Source of the DNA: Xestospongia bergquistia | Lineage: Eukaryota; Porifera; Demospongiae; Haplosclerida; Petrosiidae | Direction: 5' to 3' | Assembly: GCA_963965975.1 (NCBI GenBank) | Contig: OZ014411.1 | Location: forward strand, 5,503,001-5,567,000 | DNA length: 64,000 nt | In this document: positions 8,335 through 20,400 of the stretch, in pieces | Layout: every line of letters starts with the position of its first letter | Position numbering within the stretch: the first letter of the stretch is position 1 | Position numbers and translations under genes: made by a program | The notes under the pieces: model-generated | The model's input: only the letters and a program-made list of their open reading frames with translations | Database searches by the model: none | What the model was told of the DNA's origin: nothing

Positions 8335-8700
8335 AACTAGATTGAATGATCAGCTAGTCAGTCACTTGAATAGTCGGTCAGTTAGATAGTCAAAATAATC
8401 AGTCGAATCATCAGCTAGTAGTCACTTGAATAGTCGGTCAGTTAGATAGTCAAAATAATCAGTCCAAACATCAGTCAAATAGTCAATTGAATAGTCAATC
8501 AGTCAGTCAGTTGTATAGTCACAGGAGAGACAATAGTCAGGTGATAGCCAGTCAGTCAGTCAGTAAAGTACTTATTTGAATAATCAATCAGTCAGTCAAT
8601 CAGATAGTCAATCAAATAGACAGACACTCATCAAGTCACTGAAGTCAGTCATATAGTCAAATGCTTGATAGTTGAATGGTCAGTCAATCAGCTGTCCAGT
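8335..8700. repeat. AGTC-type minisatellite, left block
   Basis: The stretch is built from degenerate AGTCAGTCAGTCAAATAGTC-like units, with one near-exact repeat of about 60 bases (around 8341-8405 and 8401-8466). It begins exactly where homology to copy B ends. A second block of the same kind lies at 10620-11340, so the two enclose the hAT relic. Confidence 0.85.
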
Positions 8701-9876: not shown

Positions 9877-10079
9877 ATGCTTTATTTTCTTTGTTTATGA
9901 TTTTGATTTTTTTACAATTTTTAAAAAAATATATGTATGATGTGGAGAATGTGAGAGTGGGCAGTGATAAATTTTTTCAAAATTTAGGCACTGACTAGTT
10001 GCTTCTACAACCACATTGCTTTTACACCAACTTTGCTATAGTAATAGAATCATGGCTTCAATTGAACCTATAACCAAAT

Positions 10080-10122
10080 ACTATTTCAACTGAACTAACC
10101 TAGTTAGTTAAGTTGAAATAGT
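10080..10122. repeat. Inverted repeat, 20 bp arms
   Basis: ACTATTTCAACTGAACTAAC (10080-10099) pairs with 10103-10122 with one mismatch and a 3-base loop. It lies between the hAT relic and the right minisatellite. It could be the centre of a small foldback element; no terminal sites were recognised. Confidence 0.75.
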
Positions 10123-10619
10123 TAAATAGTGTCTATTTCTTGTTCATAGCAGGGCTGGGATCAAAATACAATTACAATTACATTCTATCAAATACAAATC
10201 CAATTATTGCAAACTACAAAGACTTCTTTCTGGCTTCTAGTTGGCTTTATATATAACTTAATTAGACCAGTTTCGGTTTTGTGGTAACTCAATATTGGGC
10301 TTACATCATATCATGAGATTATGATAATGAAACGATGTTAGAAGTGACAAAATACTATTTTAAGTGTGGATTTCCTGTCAGACAAATAGGCACTGCCCTC
10401 TCCTGATGGAAAGCTATTAGTAACAAAAAATAAATGTCACATTCTGTCCTTAACAAAATGTCATATTCTGGCTTTAAAATGACGTAGTTACAGCTACAAA
10501 AGCTGCCTCTTATGCCAATCTACTTAAATGTTTCATTGTTACATATCTCGAACTTTATAGAGCGACATGCTGTCATTCTGTCAAAAGAATTGGCTTGACT
10601 TATGCAAAATGCATGTGCA

Positions 10620-11340
10620 TGACTGCTACTCTACTTAGTCAAATGATGAGTCAGTCAGTCAGTAAGTCACTTAGTCAGTCAAATAGACAATCACATGGTT
10701 AGGTCAGTCAGCCAGACAGTCAGTTGAAAATAATCAGTCTAATTGTCAGTCAAATAGTCAATTAGTCACTACTGAAGAGTCAGTCAGTCCAATAATCAAT
10801 CAATAGCCAGTGCAATCAAACACTCAGTGTCAAATAGTCAAACGGTGTCAGTCAGTCAGTCAGCAAGTCAACAAGTTTTTAGTTGAATTACCAGAGAGTC
10901 GACAGTCAGTCAGTCAACTAGCTAGTTCAGACCAGCACTCATCAAGTCAGTCAAAAAGTCAAATGCTTTGTTGAATAGTTGCTACAGCCAGTCAGTCAAG
11001 TACTTGGTTGAAGGTTCAATCAGTCAGTCAATCATTCAGGCAGTCAGCCACTCAGAAAGTCAATGAACGATCAAACCTGGTCCAGCAGTCAAATAATCAG
11101 CCTGTTAGTTATTTCAATATATAGTCAGTCAACACATCAGTCTGCTAGTCAGTCATTAGTCAGTTGAATAGACAGTCAGTCAGTAAGTCAAGTAGTCAGT
11201 CATTCAGTTAAATAGTCTGTAAAAACAGTCATTAGTCAGTCAAGTAGTTGAATCAATTGTCAAATCAGGTACTTGGTTGAATGATCAGTTAGTCAGTCAG
11301 CCAGTCACTTGAAAAGTCAGTCAAATAGTCAGTTGAATAG
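10620..11340. repeat. AGTC-type minisatellite, right block
   Basis: About 700 bases of degenerate AGTCAGTCAGTC, AAATAGTC and TTGAATAGTC units match the composition of 8335-8700. The units are too diverged for a fixed period. The shared unit type suggests both blocks belong to one mobile or satellite unit around the hAT relic. Confidence 0.85.
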
Positions 11341-12400
11341 TTTTGATGCTAAGACATTATTTTCTAATATTCTTTGAAACGAAGACTGCAGCTCCATGGC
11401 GCACAACTTGCAATCTCTATCTTTTTGTCCTTTGTAATAACACGTTTCACTTATATCATCATAGTCAAATCCAAAGAACTGGGCACCAGACGCCCTTTCT
11501 CGCATTAGGCGAGTGAGCGTCTGAGGACGAGGTGTTCTGCCAACGGTCACAGACAATTATTATTTTTGTTCGGGCTATAATTTTGTTTGAAACAAACTGT
11601 TCACGTATTATACTCTGTCCGAGTTGAGAAGAGCCACCCAGACATGTGAATAACTTTGCCGTTTTACGTGCTATCCACATGGGACTTGCACCAATCGATT
11701 GAGCTTGCAAATGCGCATTTTATATATAAAATTTGGCTCTCTGGTGTCACGAGAAAGTAGCAAATTACAAAACTCCATACATTTTCAATGGCATACCTTT
11801 GACACACTTCAAATTATACACCTTCGAGGATTTAATAAATAACAATTTTCGCCTTGAGAAGTCAGTCATCTGTCACGTGAAAATTCTAAATTACAGTTCT
11901 AATTATGTGAGACTGAGAATGGCTTCTTGATCAAAATCATCAACTAACAGGCATTGTTTCAGAGATCTTGAGTCCGTTTATACCTGTTGAGTTCTTTGAA
12001 TAGTAATAGAACTCGCAACAACCTCTTTTCTATGTGATCTTTGTCTCTTTCTCTTAGGCAACAGGAGAGTGTGACCATGTGTTCTCATAATATGCACGTG
12101 AACAAATAATGAAAAACTTATAAATATACTTCAGCGCTAATTGCATTCAATAGGAGAAGAAATACGTCACCTTACCTTCCGTGCATAAAACACCTTTGTT
12201 TGTAATAACGGGTTCTCCAGAATGAGTGGCTAAAGACAGGAAGCTTGCTATCAAAAATTCATGAAGATAGGCGTGGCGATTACAGAGCCATGAATAATGT
12301 AAGTTTATTAAGATGTATGAATAAAACATTAAGATGCGTGTGTGCAACATTGAAGAATGGATGATGATGACTAATTTTTTCTGAACTTTCTGCTGCTTGT
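11341..12400. other. No recognised gene
   Basis: Short open frames occur on both strands here, but none resembles a known family and none has convincing splice context. The promoter and first exon of the USP-type gene should lie in this stretch, because the first recognisable USP exon (12409) opens at a splice acceptor with no upstream in-frame ATG. Confidence 0.5.
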
Positions 12401-12408
12401 GAAAGTAG

Positions 12409-13922
12409 CAAAAAGTTTGATGAAGTTGGACTACAGAATCTAGGAAATACATGTTTTGCAAATGCAATAGTGCAATCACTGATTCATTGTCCAGACTTTC
12501 ACAGATATTTGATGTCACATAAAGAAAGTGGTATGTAACTTTAATATTTTTGTCAATTGTACATTGAATTGTCTGTCTTTTTTTAAGAATGCAGAGGTAT
12601 ATTTTGTATGGTATGTGTACTAAAAAAACAAAACAAGAATTACAAAATAGTTCAACTTCAATTGCTCCTAAGGAGTTGTACAAAAATATGAATAGTAAGT
12701 CATAATATACAATATTACTATGAATCATCTTTCCAAAGAAATATTACTATATTGGCAGTTTAATAATCAAGAGGATGCCCATGAACTTCTATGTGGAATT
12801 CTTAAGAACCTAGAAGATGCAGACATTAGGTAATTATTATTTTCAAACAATAATGTAACAAACAATATTAACATAATGTTCTATGTAGTTCTCAAATAAA
12901 CATTGGCATTGAGACTGCAGGTGAGTAAATGATTTATATGTTGATGACATTAAAATCCTTTTAAAAAATACAGTTCGATGTGTAGAATGTAATGCAGTAA
13001 AAATAACAGAAATGTATCAGCCTCGCATTCAAATTGATACACAGGTTGGTTAAAATACAACAGCTAGCTGTGTTGAAGTAACTGTTTTTCAGAGTGAAAA
13101 TGTACATAAAGGTATTAGTAAAAATCACAAAGAAGAAACGTTGTCTCTTGATGATCTTGTACATTGCGAACGGTACATTTCCAGCATTTTCGAACTGATA
13201 GTAATATATTCTCTACTAGATGTGAGAAAGATGCTCAAGCTGTTTTGAAGCATGACATATCCCACCTGCCATCAACGCTAATAATTCATATCAGAAGGTA
13301 GATAAATTTATGAAATTAGATGACTAGTGTTACCACTAAATTAAATGTAAGGTTTACCTGGGAGAGTACACATGCTAAGAAAGATAGTCGGCATGTACAT
13401 ATTACTGAGTCAGTACAAGTCCATGATAAAAAGGTGCTTCTATCAACTGAAGTTACGAGATGACATAATTAACTTGTTCATATTTAGGCAAACACAAAAC
13501 AATATATTCTGTCCTCCATTATTGTGCACATTGGCTCTACCCCACAAGCAGGTCATTATGTGTCATATGCTCGTACAGCTGAGGGATGGTATGAGTTTGA
13601 TGATGTATTGGTAAGTTTTTTAATTCAGTATCAATATCATAAAAAATTCATGATAGGTGACACCAACAGACCTGGCAAATGTTTTAACAAAGGAAGCATA
13701 TATTCTATTCTATACTGAAGTTTGTGGCTGAGGTTTAGCACACACTTGAGTTTGACATTGATCTCAGTGAAATGGTGTATAATATGATGTGTAAATTACA
13801 ACATTCCAATCAACACTTTTCTGTCATTTTCACACTAATATAGGTGAAACATGAAATCAAAAAGAAGCTAAGTTTATCAAATATGACAAAACTAACAGAA
13901 TCCACTCTTCCTACAAAGAAAG
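12409..13922 (+). CDS. Ubiquitin-specific protease (USP, peptidase C19) domain, multi-exon
   Basis: USPs remove ubiquitin from proteins. Likely exons: 12409-12530, a piece ending 12694, 12739-12829, 12889-12920, 12974-13044, 13093-13172, 13220-13297, 13352-13433, 13488-13610, 13657 to about 13717, and 13844-13922. The Cys box is GLQNLGNTCFANA (12436-12475) with catalytic Cys. NNQEDAHELL is the second conserved block. CVEC and CERC form the zinc ribbon pair. The His box is GHYVSYARTAEGWYEFDD (13551-13605), and the domain ends AYILFYTE. Introns are short with matching phases from 12739 onward. The join between the first two exons does not keep frame with simple GT-AG sites, so a small frameshift is likely there. 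The last exons run in phase into the Ulp1 domain downstream, so the two peptidases appear to be one transcript. A host USP gene with a fused Ulp1 is the alternative to a transposon-borne gene. Confidence 0.75.
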
Positions 13923-13972
13923 GTTGTTGCTGCTATTAATTACATTTACCATAGTATACTACATGTATTTAG

Positions 13973-15065
13973 ATATGGAGAAGTGTATTCAAATGCAGTC
14001 ACTTACTTCAACAGTTGTGTCAATTTCTTGGGAGAATGCACAGCACACATACAAACAGCAAATTGATGTCAAAGGGACTGATCTTCAGTGTCTACGTCAG
14101 GTGTGGGAATCAAGTTCAAGTGGTGAATGTTGGCTCAATGACAATGTATGAAATGCAACAGATTACCAATAAAAACATTTAAATAACATTCCAGATAGTC
14201 AATGGCTATATCCTCATAATATGTAATAGTATTAAGAAAAAACTGTAAGTAAAGACATAAGAAGAGCTGACATTAACTCTTTATAGGGAGTGAACATACT
14301 ACCCATTAGTTCTTTTTTTTGGAGGCTTTAAAAGACAAAGGAATTGACAATATACTTGAAAAGTGGTATAAAAGGTAGAACTTCATTATCCATTACTACC
14401 AATTGCCTCACTTGAACAGATCAAAATGTTTTCAGAATTTAACACGTGGATTATACCTGTCAACAGATCTGCTCATTGGACAATGATGGTATATAACACA
14501 GTCCTCACTTTTAGTGTTACTGTATATGTATTCTAAACAGGTCATTGACTTCAAGAGAAGGATCATACATTACACAGATTCCTATGTCTGTCCTACCAAT
14601 ATAACATGGGCCGAAAAAGCAATAACGTGAGACAAAAATATTACCGTGTTCATTACACCTTCCTGTTATGTAACGAATAGGAAATTTATAGATGAAAGAT
14701 ATATGCAGGAAACAGGAAATAACTTTGACTGGACAAAATGGGACAGAAATGTTCATCCTGTAAGTAGAAATACAATATATCACAATTAATGTTTGAAGGA
14801 AAACTTTATTACAATAGCATGCACCACTTCAACAAAACTCAATTGATTGTGGGACATTTGCAGTAAAAGTATGTAGTGGTATTGTGATGGTTTCCTTTTA
14901 ATACTAAAAATATAGATGGCACTATGTATTGCTAGCACAACTGATGCAGACTTTACCCAGGTATAAGGTTTATAAATCATAAAGCTATGTTCATTTACCA
15001 GTACAGAATGATGTACCAAGATTTATATACGAGGTCATGTATGAAATTCTCAATCAACACCTTTT
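13973..15065 (+). CDS. Ulp1/SENP-type (C48) cysteine protease domain fused after the USP
   Basis: Ulp1/SENP proteases cleave SUMO-type modifiers. Exons: 13973-14145, 14195-14244, 14287-14374, 14436-14488, 14541-14626, 14681-14759, 14818-14868, 14916-14960 and 15007-15065. The domain opens with WLNDNIVNGYI. Catalytic His is in WIIPVNRSAHWTMM, the Asp in VIDFKRRIIHYTDS, and Gln plus Cys in PLQQNSIDCGTF; all four catalytic positions are present. From 14541 on every intron joins in phase. The exon at 14287-14374 has a run of eight T where the frame shifts by one, and its joins to the neighbouring exons are out of phase, so the domain may be partly disabled or a base may be miscounted in the homopolymer. 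The preceding USP exon (ending 13922, phase 1) joins 13973 in phase, which is the evidence for one polypeptide. Confidence 0.75.
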
Positions 15066-15169
15066 GTAAGTTGCTAATAACTTAACCATGACACATGTAT
15101 TACATCAGGGAACACAATGAAGATCGATTAAATCTGCAAAAGAATTCAGCTCTTGCCTGTGCAATTAAA

Positions 15170-15412
15170 AGTAATCCAATCAGAGGAAGTGCTAGCAATG
15201 GTGGCCTACAGCCCTCAAAGTGTAAGTCTCAATTAATGGGCATCTTATTTTACCATATGATAGTAACTAATACAATACAACCAACAAATACCAAAGTCAC
15301 ATCACAAGTCAGTAATCCAACCATAGGAAGTGGTACCAAAGGTGGTCTACAGCTCTTAAAGAGTAAGTTTTAACTCATGAGCAACTTACTTTGTGTATGA
15401 TAGCAACCAAGA
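15170..15412 (+). repeat. Tandemly duplicated exon-intron unit in the linker
   Basis: An AGTAATCCAA...GGAAGTG... unit that ends at a GTAAGT donor, together with its short following intron, occurs twice with a 141-base period (15170-15310 and 15311-15412). The predicted exons 15109-15221 and 15264-15362 carry SNPIRGSASNGGLQPSK and SNPTIGSGTKGGLQLLK, are in phase with each other, and join the Ulp1 exon at 15065 in phase. The peptide is low-complexity linker with no domain that I recognise. Confidence 0.7.
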
Positions 15413-15441
15413 TCAATTTATGCTTCACAATTTTCTCACAG

Positions 15442-16660
15442 CAGTTAAGAAGAGGGTCAGTTCCATAATACCACAATGGTTTGTGTCTGATGATGCTAAG
15501 CAATTTTTATAATGCCTGGAGGTCAGTGTTTGGTGAAGTCAACAACAAACTGTTATGCACCTGGCACGTGGATAGGGCATGGTGTGAGAAACTGTCGTTG
15601 ATAAAAGACAAACAGACACAGGTAACTGTGTATCACAACTTGCATGTTTTACTGGAGGAGAAAGACATACAGAAATTTCAAATACTTCTAACAAAAACAA
15701 TTAAACAACTTCAGATGAATGACGAAACATCTCCATTTGCAGAATATTTTATCAGAACCTACGTAGATAGAAAACAACAATGGGCACAATGCTATAGACA
15801 GGGATCGTTTATTAATACGAACATGTATGTTGAGCCTTTCTATCGTGTATTAAAGTATATATACATGAATGGTAGGATCAATAAAAGAGTGGACAATTGT
15901 ATCAATACATTAATGAAAATTACAAGGGACAAAGCATTCGAATGACTTATAAAACTAACCAAAGGAAAGAAGACAAAGAGATTGATTGACATACACAAAA
16001 GACATTTAACCAGCAAGAACATGACAATAGATTCAGTTGAACAAGTTAAAGATGGAGTATGGGATGTGACATCATCATGTGGTAATGACAAATATAGAGT
16101 GACTATAGAGAATGAGGTATGCCCAGTGAATTGTAGACTAAGTTGTAATGACTGCAACACATGTGTCCACTCCTAATCCTGTACATGTCAAGACTATACT
16201 ACAATAGGAAACATATGCAAACACATTCATTTAATGGTAGAATTTCAACAACACAACAGTCAAGAACAACTAAATGAAAACAACTCAACTAATGATGGAA
16301 AGAATTCAGACAAAGAATTAAATGACTTACTTAAAGCAATAATGTCAGATGGTGGTGATTTGGACATTATTGAAACCAGACAACACGTTTTTAACAAAAT
16401 TCAGACTATTACAACATTAGTAGAACAATGTACTGATAAACAGACATTACAAACAATAAACACACAGCTTGGTACCACAATAGGACTAATAAAATGTCAT
16501 TTAGAGCAGACAAAACCAGTACTTCCACTGACACAACATGAACCAGTAAATAAAACTATAGCTCCACAACGACCATTCTTCAGCACTCAAAAAAGACAAA
16601 AAAACCATCAGTTAGACTAGCAAAGCCAAAGAACACTAAAAAAAAGAAATTGAAAAACAA
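15442..16660 (+). pseudogene. Mutator-like (MULE) transposase, C-terminal part with SWIM finger
   Basis: The frame shows the MULE catalytic core: PQWFVSDDAKQF (15470-15507) with an acidic catalytic residue, then after a one-base frameshift YNAWRSVFG and LLCTWHVDRAW, then MYVEPFYRVLKYIYM with the catalytic Glu (15820-15870). The CHC-type SWIM zinc finger SCTCQDYTTIGNICKHIH is at 16177-16230. In-frame stops at 15943-15945 (TGA) and 16174-16176 (TAA) and a frameshift near 16600 disable it. The N-terminal third of a usual MULE transposase, with the first catalytic Asp, is missing; where it should be, the Ulp1 domain and linker stand. The splice phase at 15362/15442 would join linker to transposase. 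Confidence 0.75.
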
Positions 16661-16760
16661 TTAAACAATGACACAAGATTGTATCTGACGAAGAAAGCCA
16701 CATATTGTATGACTAAATCTAACATTAAACAATAAAATAACAATTACTTTCCCTTTATAG

Positions 16761-17260
16761 ATACTCTAATACTGTTATGTACCAAAGATAGAGCAGATAC
16801 GATCATTAATGGAACAGCAAACAAATTAACACTGGTACAAATGAAAAAGAAAATGGACAACCTACCTGATGAGATAATTGACTTTGATATCTCTAATGTT
16901 CAGGATTACTTGACAAATGAAGCATGGGAAGCATTACAACAAGTAGGTAAGGTGACATTACACTTCAAACATACTATCATCAACACAAAACCACAGTGAC
17001 TACCAAATGTCTTGAATGGATGTGCTCTCATTGTCAACTATCTACAACACACAGAAACATGATAGAATGTGATGATTGCTGCAGATGGTTTCACTGGTAA
17101 GTATATTAAATGGTATATTATATATAGTTGATTTGGTAATAATATACAGACTAAGATTAACATATAATATTACCATCTATTTTGTAGGACATTTTGTGAA
17201 TATTGAAAATCCACCAAATGCTGCATAGATCTGCTCAAGTTGCATTAAGATAAAGTCAAT
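16761..17260 (+). pseudogene. PHD finger exons at the end of the MULE locus
   Basis: An exon of about 16761-16944 (no known domain) joins in phase to 16987-17099, which encodes WMCSHCQLSTTHRNMIEC, then DDCCRWFHW: the first half of a PHD finger, a reader of histone tails. The next exon (from about 17188) gives VNIENPPNAA, a stop where Trp is expected, then ICSSC, in a frame shifted by one base. The PHD is therefore complete in outline but broken. A C-terminal PHD is common in metazoan transposases of this style. Confidence 0.65.
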
Positions 17261-17471
17261 TAAAATAGAAGAATGACTACACTAGATATAATCACTTACT
17301 TTTGAGTTTGTTTACTCCACAAGACATCACTTGCTTTTTACTTTTACTACTTTTGAGTTTGTAATTATTAATTGTTACTCCGCCTACTGTTAATTTTGTT
17401 GCTATGAATATATAATATACCATTCCTATGGAAACATTCAGCCGCTTCTTCTCCAGAGCATAGACTTAGTA

Positions 17472-20400
17472 ATGATGTGGTGGAAGAAAAAAAGGAATGC
17501 CTACTACTTTGTCTTCCTCATTCTTATATTAGCTATACTTTTTGTTATCCTTTCTAAATACAAAGTTGGATTATCACCACCGTCATCGTTGATACCAAAT
17601 CGCAAAGTATGGAAGACAAATCGAAAGAATCATTCGTCCAAATGCTATCGAGTAGACCTAAAAAAACTTAATAGTATTTATTTAAGTGTGAAGACGTCCA
17701 AGAAATTCCACCAAAAACGTCTGGCTCCTCTGTTGGTGACATGGATGCAAGTATTAAACCCACATCAGGTTAGGATTGATGTTATATATATATATATACC
17801 ATAGGTGTAGGAACAGGGGGGGCACAGGGGGCACATGTCCCCCCAATAGTTTTGGTATATTGTGAGATGGTTTCACAATCAACTGATTTAGATTAGCCAC
17901 TTTTCAAACCCTATCCTCATAGTACAATTAACACCTGTAGATGCACATTTTATGTAAAAACATTTCAAAAGTTTTTGTCAGTATAAACAACAGAAGAAGG
18001 TTTTATTTTGGTTGTTTTTGAAATACTTCATTGCTAAACTGAACAATGTTAAAATGTTACATATGTGCCTCCCGAATGACAAAATTGTTAAAGGAAGTTA
18101 AGGAACTATGAAACATTATGTGACTGTGGTTTGTAGTAAATATGTGTTAATGTGAAGTATGTTAATCAGCATGTTGAAAAGAAGAGACCTGGTTGTTCAT
18201 TGACAAGAATCATTTGCTAAACTGGGATATGACAGAGTTAGGCCAGAGCAGATAAAGGTATATAAGCTTTATTATGGAATGTAGATCCTATATGTTCAGA
18301 ACAGAGAGAAGGTATTTCTGATTGTAGAAATGTACATAATTTAGTAACGAGGCTTTTCCTGATAATAATAATAATAATTATTATTAATGTCACACACAGA
18401 AGACTGCCCAGCTACCAATGGCTTACGAGTGACGAATTAATTACAAAATAATATAAATTTGGATTAAGTAATAAACTTAGAGTGACTAAACAAAACAAGA
18501 GAGAAAAACAAAATTAACGACTATATGACTAAATTCAATCTTAAAATGAACATTTCGTTGAGATACATCGATGGCATATGGCTGAATTCATTTGATAAAA
18601 TGATAGTGAGTTTGTCTGTGGGGGGAAGTGAGTAAAATGATGGTTCTTTGGAAGTGATTGTGTTGTAGAGTTTGAGACGTGTGTTATTGTACTTTGGACA
18701 GAACAGGACAAAATGAGATACATCTTCTACTGAATTTGTGTTACAAAGAGTACATAGTCTATCTTTAAGAGGTAGCTTAGGAACATGAAAATGCCCCCTC
18801 TCAACTGCTAGGGGCAGACAACCCCCATGTATGGCCGCCATTGTCCAACATCTCTTCGCAGTCATATTGACAAGCACATAACTAGGTGGCAATGACTCCT
18901 GTTGTAGTTGTCTATATATTACTAACTTACCTTCTGTCTCAGATGAAGGATCTAAAGGTTTATTTAGTAGAGACTGCCAGTCCTCATTGGCTATAGTGTG
19001 TATTATATTATGTAGTTCTAAAGGTATTAGGCTCATGGTATTATAATATCCTCTTATTTTACACATTAATTTTATGCAATGCCAAGACCAAGTGTGTTTT
19101 CCTAAATTACCTAAGTTAGTGAATTGTTTGAATAGACTTTGTAGTAAGGGGTCACATGTAGTACTATTAGTTGTATAAAGAGTTTAAGAATGATATTCAT
19201 TTGTTTATAATGGATGGGAAGCCATCCCATTTCTCCTGTTAAAGCAACTATGGTTAACTGCTCTTGGTAATCCCATATACAAGCACTGTAGTCTAATATT
19301 AGAGTTACTAATAATTTATATAACAATGTATATGTCTGATAAAGAAAGCCACCAAAATCTTTAGAACGTGCACAAACTCCTGCCAGAGCTTTCCTGGCTG
19401 ATCTTGCAGTATGTTCTAAAGTTTGTTTACAGTCCAAATATTCATTAAACCATATTCATAAGTATTTATATTCATTACAATAGTCTATGATGGTACTATT
19501 ACATGCAAAGGGAAAAGATGATCTGGCTAATATGCAGTACTTTAGTTTTATTGATGTTCATAGCTAAACGATTCTTGTCACACCATGTAGCTACTCTACA
19601 AATAAGCTGTTGTAAATCATTTTCATTATTGGCAAACAATGCAATATCATCAGCATACAGAAGGATACACATAACTATGTCCTCTTCTGTATTTACTCCT
19701 AAATTTAAATTTTTAACATAGGGAACTAGGTCATTAATATATAAATTAAAAAGTGCTGGCGATAGGAGGCAACTCTGTTGACACCCCTATTTACTGTGAA
19801 CCACTCAGTGCCAGTACCATTTATTTCTAAACAATAATTAACTCTAGAATATAATGCTTTAAGATTTTCTAACAAATTACCATTAATTCCATAACATAAC
19901 TTATACCAAAGTAAATTCCTATCTACACTATGAAATACCTTCTTTAAATCAATAAACTATATAAATGTATCCTTATTGATAAGGTTTCTATTTTGTGCCA
20001 TTAAGTAAAGAATGAGAGCATGTTCAAGACCACTTCTAAATCTTAGTTGTTCTTTTACGAGTATTTCATTGTCTTCTAGCCAGTAAGTTAATCGTTTGTT
20101 TAATATACTTGTATATGAATTACATTGGAGAGCAATTCCCTTATACTTTAGAGGGTCAGTAAGATTGCCTGATTTTGGGACTGGTAATATAATTGCTTTA
20201 TGCCATAAATTAGGACAACAGCTAGTTTGGAAACATGTTCTAAAAAGCTGGATAGTAAAAGGAATAAGATTAGGATGTTTAAAGTAAAGCTAGGTTCACA
20301 ATATGGACGCAAGCTCTTGCATTACGTTACGTTGCGTTTACGTATTCTACTTGCGTTTTGTGAACATAAAAACGGGTGAAATGTTTGACGAACGCAGGGA

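What the first reader, a model, noticed from the sequence alone, without database searches (positions are those of the whole stretch)
12409..17260. USP + Ulp1 + MULE transposase + SWIM + PHD in one plus-strand array
Two different peptidases of the ubiquitin/SUMO systems (C19 and C48), each with its full set of catalytic residues visible, stand directly upstream of a Mutator-like transposase with SWIM and PHD fingers. The USP to Ulp1 exons join in phase (13922 to 13973), and the linker to transposase exons also can (15362 to 15442). The transposase lacks its N-terminal third, where the linker and Ulp1 now stand. Plant MULEs of the Kaonashi group are known to carry Ulp1-like genes; a USP and Ulp1 tandem ahead of a metazoan MULE core is, to my knowledge, not a described combination. 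It may be a transposon that captured modifier-removing enzymes, or a host fusion gene next to a transposon relic.
Basis: partly seen in the sequence, partly recalled or inferred. Interest (0 to 1): 0.8.

Follow-up and report, generated by a model that had tools for sequence, protein, structure and literature searches.

The report
Jumping gene with two modifier-removing enzymes
This stretch is one decayed copy of a mobile DNA element (Mutator type) that carries, ahead of its transposase, two different enzymes for stripping the protein tags ubiquitin and SUMO; each enzyme type has been reported beside transposases before, but the pair together in one element was not found in the papers searched.

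Summary
Window 12222-17449 is one insertion of a Mutator-like DNA transposon (MULE): short terminal inverted repeats, an 8-bp target duplication (TCTCCAGA), and inside, in order, a C19 USP, a C48 Ulp1 and a MULE transposase with SWIM and PHD modules. The block recurs at other loci, so the peptidases travel with the transposase and are not a neighbouring host gene. A second family, about 45% identical in the transposase, has the same order, with active-site motifs of both peptidases spread over decayed copies. A third group has the USP.

The missing transposase N-terminal third is a local deletion of about 1.2 kb at 15409/15410; fuller copies hold two C2H2 fingers and the first catalytic Asp there. 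The proposed 15362-15442 splice is therefore not native; the 13922-13973 join stands. This copy is dead.

Ulp1 in MULEs, OTU in MULEs and Ginger, and C19 beside another transposase are published. USP plus Ulp1 in one MULE was not found in ten paper searches. I call it a new variant of a known kind. Most likely role, inferred: protecting transposase and insertion chromatin from ubiquitin/SUMO-dependent turnover or silencing.

The parts
12214..12221 (.). left copy of the target site duplication, TCTCCAGA
   Evidence: same 8 bases directly outside both ends
12222..12242 (+). left terminal inverted repeat (..GTGGCTAAAGACAGGAA)
   Evidence: 18 of 21 match to the reverse complement of the right end of copy L040; the pattern GYGGCTAAAGACAGGAA with up to 1 mismatch occurs 39 times in the genome, the reversed control 0
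12222..17449 (+). whole element as inserted here (5,228 bp), family F1
   Evidence: TIRs, TSD and recurrence of the block in dispersed loci
12404..12531 (+). USP (C19) Cys-box exon, GLQNLGNTCFANAIVQSL
   Evidence: PF00443 E=1.3e-9; donor GT after it kept in 5 of 5 copies covering it, window included
12762..12830 (+). USP NQEDAHE exon
   Evidence: also in L042, L043 and the duplicate L041, there as NQENAHE
12973..13044 (+). USP CxxC zinc-ribbon half (VRCVECN)
13488..13613 (+). USP His-box exon, IVHIGSTPQAGHYVSYARTAEGWYEFDD
   Evidence: PF00443 E=8.7e-9
13973..14148 (+). Ulp1 (C48) first exon with WLNDNV
   Evidence: joins the USP exon in phase; acceptor AG kept in 4 of 4 copies covering it, window included; SENP2 alignment
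14195..14245 (+). Ulp1 exon IVNGYILIICNSIKKKL
14375..14489 (+). Ulp1 exon with catalytic His (SAHWTMM)
14541..14627 (+). Ulp1 exon with catalytic Asp (YTDS)
14818..14868 (+). Ulp1 exon with Gln and catalytic Cys (LQQNSIDCGTF)
   Evidence: flanking AG and GT kept in 4 of 4 copies covering them, window included
15139..15361 (+). linker exons (two related GG-LQ-K repeats)
   Evidence: donor at the end kept in 5 of 5 copies covering it, window included
15409..15410 (.). deletion junction: about 1.2 kb present in L040 (two C2H2 fingers, Cys/His module, first catalytic Asp) is missing here
   Evidence: L040 has 1,183 bases between the flanking blocks
15411..16173 (+). rest of MULE transposase core (second Asp SDDA, Glu NMYVEP), with a frameshift and a stop
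   Evidence: the naming of the Asp and Glu residues is recalled
16117..16240 (+). SWIM-type Cys/His module, interrupted by a stop at 16174
   Evidence: PF04434 below cut-off; motif CTC..C.H seen
17005..17106 (+). first half of a PHD finger (CSHC..ECDDCCRWFHW)
   Evidence: PF00628 E=1.8e-4, 21.9 bits against a cut-off of 24
17440..17449 (-). right terminal inverted repeat, shortened to AGCCGCTTCT in this copy
   Evidence: longer form CCTGTCTTTAGCCGCTTCT in L040, L042, L043
17450..17457 (.). right copy of the target site duplication, TCTCCAGA

Best explanation
The array is one dead copy of a Mutator-like DNA transposon whose coding part holds a USP-type ubiquitin peptidase and an Ulp1-type SUMO peptidase ahead of a zinc-finger MULE transposase with SWIM and PHD modules. 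Shown: a single mobile unit, peptidases and transposase copied together, and the same order in a second diverged family. Probable but not shown: all domains are exons of one spliced gene and one long protein. Inferred: the zinc fingers and PHD bring the protein to element ends and chromatin, where the two peptidases remove ubiquitin and SUMO from the transposase itself and from local chromatin or repair proteins. That would lengthen the transposase's life and weaken ubiquitin/SUMO-dependent silencing during transposition. The window copy can do none of this now.
For: TIRs and an 8-bp TSD in the window. TSDs in 5 of the 6 two-ended elements looked at: window, L042 and L054 exact, L055 and L056 7 of 8, L043 none. 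TIR pattern 39 hits against 0 for the reversed control. The block recurs at other loci. Order USP, then Ulp1, then MULE on one strand far above random placement: 9 of 45, 6 of 13 and 11 of 73 places, random means 0.01, 0.03 and 0.16. Second family: Ulp1 in 2 of 3 copies read (C3, L048; L046 lacks that part), USP in 3 of 3; copy L048 alone shows USP, Ulp1, C2H2, core and PHD in order. Exon composites of it give C48 E=5.4e-8 and 1.5e-5 and C19 E=1.8e-12. Third group with USP: C19 E=2.1e-10 and 3.4e-10. Unrooted tree splits the peptidase families from a clade of 12 in which none was seen, support 0.898; 3 of the 12 were read far enough upstream, 9 only by absence from the genome lists. Most splice sites are conserved between copies. 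Of 11 loci searched for the C2H2 exon by a motif, 2 (both F1) matched, and neither has an ATG before it in its open frame, so it seems to need upstream exons.
Against: No transcript or protein evidence. Within family F1 the peptidase exons show little constraint: distinct changes 10 silent and 34 replacement in USP (p=0.74), 18 and 35 in Ulp1 (p=0.08), 68 and 153 in transposase (p=0.04), with 5, 2 and 18 nonsense changes; this is as expected of dead copies but no help for function. No second-family copy has every active-site motif: L048 has Asn at the Ulp1 Asp, C3 lacks His in the USP His box, and the Ulp1 Cys box was seen only in L048. One USP acceptor site is AG in the window and its duplicate but AT in L042 and L043. 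The function of the peptidases is inferred only. Families in which no peptidase was seen persist in the same genome, so they are not required for transposition in general.
Confidence: 0.6

Rival explanations
1. A passenger capture (Pack-MULE-like): an ancestral element picked up a host USP-Ulp1 gene once and it has been copied along without function.
For: F1 copies show weak or no constraint on the USP; MULEs are known for acquiring host gene fragments (abstract of PMC6446971 in the listing).
Against: The pair and many active-site motifs survive in a second family whose transposase is only about 45% identical and whose USP is far more diverged, and the USP also in a third group.
Confidence: 0.2
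2. The peptidases and the transposase are separate genes within one element: a peptidase helper gene followed by a transposase gene, as the Ulp1-bearing gene is one of three coding genes in plant Kaonashi MULEs.
For: Plant MULEs keep the Ulp1 gene as a separate coding gene (PMC13317346, passages). Nothing here proves a joined transcript.
Against: All lie on one strand, with conserved splice sites up to the linker exons between Ulp1 and C2H2, and no ATG stands before the C2H2 exon in the 2 F1 copies where the motif search found it.
Confidence: 0.3
3. A host USP-Ulp1 fusion gene that happens to stand beside a MULE relic.
For: The window alone could be read so.
Against: TIR and TSD enclose both. 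Of the 9 USP-Ulp1 pairs found in the genome, 5 were read in full or in part (window, L040, L041, L043, L057) and all 5 are family-F1 copies; 4 were not read.
Confidence: 0.02

Closest known systems
Ulp1-bearing MULEs: Kaonashi/KIU (VANDAL) of plants, and MuDR-type elements of hydra and lancelet
   Same: MULE transposon with an Ulp1 (C48) domain; MuDR elements with Ulp1 are stated for hydra and lancelet in PMC2836005 (passages), plant KIU in PMC13317346 (passages)
   Different: no USP is mentioned for them in the passages read; the plant Ulp1 lies in a separate gene; here Ulp1 stands upstream of the transposase and behind a USP
Ginger1 DNA transposons (OTU or Ulp1, one with PHD)
   Same: ubiquitin/SUMO-type cysteine protease and PHD finger in a transposase; the paper proposes a role of the ubiquitin pathway in transposition (PMC2836005, passages)
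   Different: Gypsy-integrase type core, C-terminal protease, either OTU or Ulp1 but not both; here a MULE core, N-terminal position, two protease classes
Transposase_11 plus peptidase C19 protein of Trichomonas vaginalis (XP_001314237.1, named in PMC2836005)
   Same: a C19 peptidase tied to a transposase
   Different: another transposase class; no Ulp1 is mentioned
MuDR-6_HM (hydra) with OTU; Rehavkus with PHD
   Same: MULE with an ovarian-tumour type deubiquitinase domain; MULE-like element with PHD (Table 1 of PMC6446971, section read)
   Different: OTU instead of USP plus Ulp1

Membership tests
Mutator-like elements (MULE) | MULE/RNase H-like transposase core | tested here: met
   PF10551 4.4e-8 and PF21056 6.8e-11 on copy L040; PF10551 2.8e-11 on the second family. 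The window's own exon has no Pfam hit
Mutator-like elements (MULE) | terminal inverted repeats | tested here: met
   about 20 bp; 39 pattern hits against 0 for the control
Mutator-like elements (MULE) | target site duplication of 8-11 bp | tested here: met
   8 bp; 3 exact and 2 of 7/8 among 6 elements; L043 has none
Mutator-like elements (MULE) | SWIM-type zinc module after the core | tested here: inconclusive
   motif visible, Pfam SWIM below cut-off in the window and no hit for the second-family piece L046:3427-3999
Peptidase C19 (USP) | Cys and His boxes with QEDAHE and Asp | tested here: met
   PF00443 over cut-off for each of two exons; motifs
Peptidase C19 (USP) | cleaves ubiquitin | not testable with these tools
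   needs an assay
Peptidase C48 (Ulp1/SENP) | His-Asp-Gln-Cys catalytic set in a C48 domain | tested here: met
   PF02902 4.3e-8; SENP2 3.8e-7 with HW, DS, Q and DCG aligned, on an exon composite
Peptidase C48 (Ulp1/SENP) | cleaves SUMO rather than another modifier | not testable with these tools
   sequence nearest to SENP2, an Ulp1-like SUMO protease and SENP1
Kaonashi/KIU MULEs | non-TIR plant VANDAL element with Ulp1 in a VANC-type gene | tested here: not met
   TIRs present; peptidases upstream of the transposase on the same strand; ZSWIM1-3-like core
Ginger1 | Gypsy-integrase type transposase | tested here: not met
   core matches MULE and ZSWIM1-3 models, no integrase model; TSD is 8 bp

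The most novel reading that the evidence does not exclude
A transposase that is itself a double deconjugase: one long protein that binds element ends and chromatin (C2H2, SWIM, PHD), cuts DNA (DDE), and strips both ubiquitin and SUMO, so that each transposition event carries its own countermeasure against SUMO- and ubiquitin-dependent silencing or turnover. The trait would have been kept since before families F1 and F2 split.
Probability: 0.25. Interest if true: 0.8.

Novelty: new variant of a known kind. Interest (0 to 1): 0.5.

Why it matters
Modifier-removing proteases have turned up in several unrelated transposons (Ulp1 in MULEs and Ginger, OTU in MULEs, Ginger and Helitrons), and in the passages read their role there is unknown or only proposed. 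An element with a ubiquitin and a SUMO peptidase side by side, in two families about 45% identical in the transposase, is a natural test case: both activities can be measured and each can be inactivated separately in a transposition assay.

Tried and rejected
Rejected: host fusion gene (TIR, TSD and copies enclose the whole block). Rejected: replacement of the transposase N-terminus by Ulp1 (L040, L016 at C14 and, in part, L039 and L042 hold transposase sequence that the window lacks at this junction). Rejected: splice 15362-15442 as native (coding in L040). Selection test within F1: mostly neutral, so it does not support function. Searches for relatives elsewhere: 1 scan of genome contigs with the 393-aa second-family core and 1 of viral contigs with a 374-aa relative found none; no other animal genomes were searched, so distribution across animals is untested, and the organism was not identified. 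Rfam gave 0 hits in the window. Ulp1 motifs were not found in the third group, but its four loci read (L038, L047, L049, L050) look internally deleted, so Ulp1 may simply be lost there (L038 was not in the scan).

Rows dropped before counts: the co-location lists were typed after merging neighbouring rows by hand: 108 places from 135 MULE rows, 13 from 26 Ulp1 rows, 73 from 117 PF00443 rows, all 45 USP rows. Three contig lengths in the random placement were approximate. For the tree, six loci that repeat others (L009, L010, L011, L017, L018, L036) were left out beforehand; L001-L008 gave no hit; L013 and L034 were dropped as repeats and L043, L049, L050 as too short. In one search the window was not paired with its segmental duplicate.
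Full report
Setting. The window is bases 5503001-5567000 of contig C1 in a genome of 146 Mb and 21 contigs that is not named. I did not identify the organism.

What is there. Three-frame translation shows USP exons from 12404 to 13613, Ulp1 exons from 13973 to 14868, linker exons to 15361, transposase pieces from about 15411 to 16620 and a half PHD finger at 17005-17106. Pfam supports USP on single exons (1.3e-9 and 8.7e-9). Ulp1 is supported only when its exons are put together (4.3e-8; SENP2 3.8e-7). The transposase is recognised by Pfam when the fuller copy L040 is read (PF21056 6.8e-11, PF10551 4.4e-8) but not from the window's exon alone. SWIM and the half PHD are below Pfam's cut-offs in the window.

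It is one mobile element. Comparing window 10000-19500 with fetched loci shows parts of the block from about 12245 to 17439 repeated elsewhere, mostly at about 81-98% identity. At the left end ATGAGTGGCTAAAGACAGGAA is an inverted copy, 18 of 21, of the right end of L040. The window's right end is a shortened form. TCTCCAGA stands directly outside both ends, at 12214-12221 and 17450-17457. The TIR pattern has 39 hits genome-wide with up to one mismatch; its reversed control has none. Of 6 elements with both ends read, 3 have exact 8-bp duplications (window TCTCCAGA, L042 AGGAGGGC, L054 CTGCTTCT), 2 have 7 of 8 (L055, L056) and L043 has none. L054 and L055 are tiny derivatives of about 125 and 50 bp with the same ends.

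Peptidases and transposase belong together. The USP Cys exon has 45 hits in the genome, 11 of them at 89-100% identity. The Ulp1 composite has 26 hits at 13 places. The transposase core has 135 rows. On the same strand and in order, 9 of 45 USP places have Ulp1 within 3 kb, 6 of 13 Ulp1 places have a MULE core within 5 kb, and 11 of 73 PF00443 places have a MULE core within 6 kb; random placement gives 0.01, 0.03 and 0.16 on average (inputs merged by hand as told under Tried and rejected). Most PF00443 places without a core are probably ordinary host USPs; that was not tested. Of the F1-like USP places without a detected core, L043, L056 and L057 were read and lack most of the transposase: L043 has both TIRs, L056 a left end and a right TIR, L057 a left TIR.

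Why this copy looks truncated. At 15409/15410 L040 has 1,183 more bases. Read in L040, they encode two C2H2 fingers (zf-C2H2 8.4e-5, 23.3 bits against a cut-off of 25.2), a Cys/His module that I would recall as FAR1/FLYWCH-like but that no Pfam model called, and the part of the core with the first catalytic Asp (CIDSTHGT; residue role recalled). The bases around 15442 are inside an exon there. The window copy also has a frameshift in the core and stops at 15943 and 16174. A second copy 32 kb upstream (C1:5.483-5.489 Mb, L041) shares flanks and the deletion and is a segmental duplicate, not an independent insertion.

Conservation beyond the family. A second family (C3:7.80 Mb, C2:0.79 Mb, C3:6.66 Mb) is 42-45% identical in the core. 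L048 alone has, in order, USP (SNCY, QDSHE, RHY), Ulp1 (YLTDE, CHWTL, VDCG), a C2H2 piece, the core with both Asp motifs, and PHD. C3 has USP, Ulp1, the later core and PHD. L046 has USP, C2H2, core and a SWIM motif but lacks the Ulp1 part. No single copy shows every active-site motif: L048 has an Asn where C3 has the Ulp1 Asp, C3 has Leu where L048 has the USP His, and the Ulp1 Cys box was seen only in L048. A third group (L038, L047, L049, L050) has the USP; Ulp1 was not seen, but these loci look internally deleted. Three relatives read with about 3.7-5.1 kb upstream (L051 with L021, L052 with L019, L053) show neither USP motifs nor an Ulp1 set; one isolated Asp-Ser match in L051 I take for chance. 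The unrooted FastTree of 31 sequences puts the peptidase families on one side and these three with nine others on the other, support 0.898; for the nine, absence rests only on the genome lists, which hold the best candidates. One acquisition of the pair before F1 and F2 split is the simplest reading; it is not proven, as the tree has no outgroup and the F2 USP is much diverged.

Selection. Within F1, pooled pairwise dN/dS is 0.70 for USP, 0.51 for Ulp1 and 0.56 for transposase (pairs not independent). Counting distinct changes, none is strongly constrained (p 0.74, 0.08 and 0.04). Dead copies dominate. The argument for function rests on the between-family conservation.

One protein or two? Splice sites in the USP-Ulp1 part are kept in nearly all copies that cover them; the acceptor before the QEDAHE exon is AG in the window and its duplicate but AT in L042 and L043, so that boundary is uncertain. 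Of 11 loci searched, the C2H2 motif was found in 2, both F1; there the exon begins right after an AG and a stop, with no ATG before it. In L053, a relative without peptidases, an open frame beginning with ATG leads into the C2H2 finger. This favours one joined gene but does not show it.

How it may work (inference). Zinc fingers and PHD would target element ends and chromatin, the DDE core cuts, and the N-terminal peptidases remove ubiquitin and SUMO from the transposase and nearby proteins. Bao and colleagues proposed for Ginger and Ulp1-MULEs that such proteases act in transposition or repair (PMC2836005, passages). In Arabidopsis, KIU-carrying VANDALs escape epigenetic silencing through VANC-type proteins, though the role of their Ulp1 domain is unknown (PMC13317346, passages).

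What is known. Of PMC6446971 I read a word search and section 6 with Table 1: OTU in MuDR-6_HM, PHD in Rehavkus, no occurrence in the main text of peptidase, ubiquitin, Ulp1 or sponge. PMC2836005: passages only. PMC13317346, PMC13359780, PMC10027918: passages only. PMC12062965: a word search with no occurrence. That a USP-Ulp1 pair in one MULE was not found in print rests on the listings of searches of open-access papers; Repbase reports are not held and could hold such an element.

Verdict. Real and correctly seen in its main parts, wrongly explained in two details, a new variant of a known kind. Identity as one mobile element: about 0.95. Single joined protein: about 0.65. Proposed role: about 0.35.

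Noticed in passing
about 10114-18894, and G000:C1:5481001-5490000 (L041): The region around the element is a segmental duplicate at about 90-95% of a stretch 32 kb upstream, with the same MULE insertion and the same internal deletion.
   Followed up: partly
18521-20289, minus strand: Open frames with a YADD reverse-transcriptase motif, probably a non-LTR retrotransposon remnant; named from the motif, not searched.
   Followed up: no
10640-11340: Long irregular run of cagtcagt-like repeats next to the element; a 60-bp array of similar make-up lies at 8344-8503.
   Followed up: no
L054 (C14:1456121-1456320) and L055 (C1:13921101-13921250): Miniature derivatives of the element, about 125 and 50 bp, with the same ends and 8-bp duplications (8 of 8 and 7 of 8); the 50-bp one is little more than two TIRs.
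   Followed up: partly
L021, L028, L053: Related MULEs in the same genome in which no peptidase was seen (L028 not read far upstream), with core, SWIM-like and PHD-like modules; the core type matches the ZSWIM1/3 model in related copies, so they may be relatives of the source of animal ZSWIM1/3 genes.
   Followed up: no
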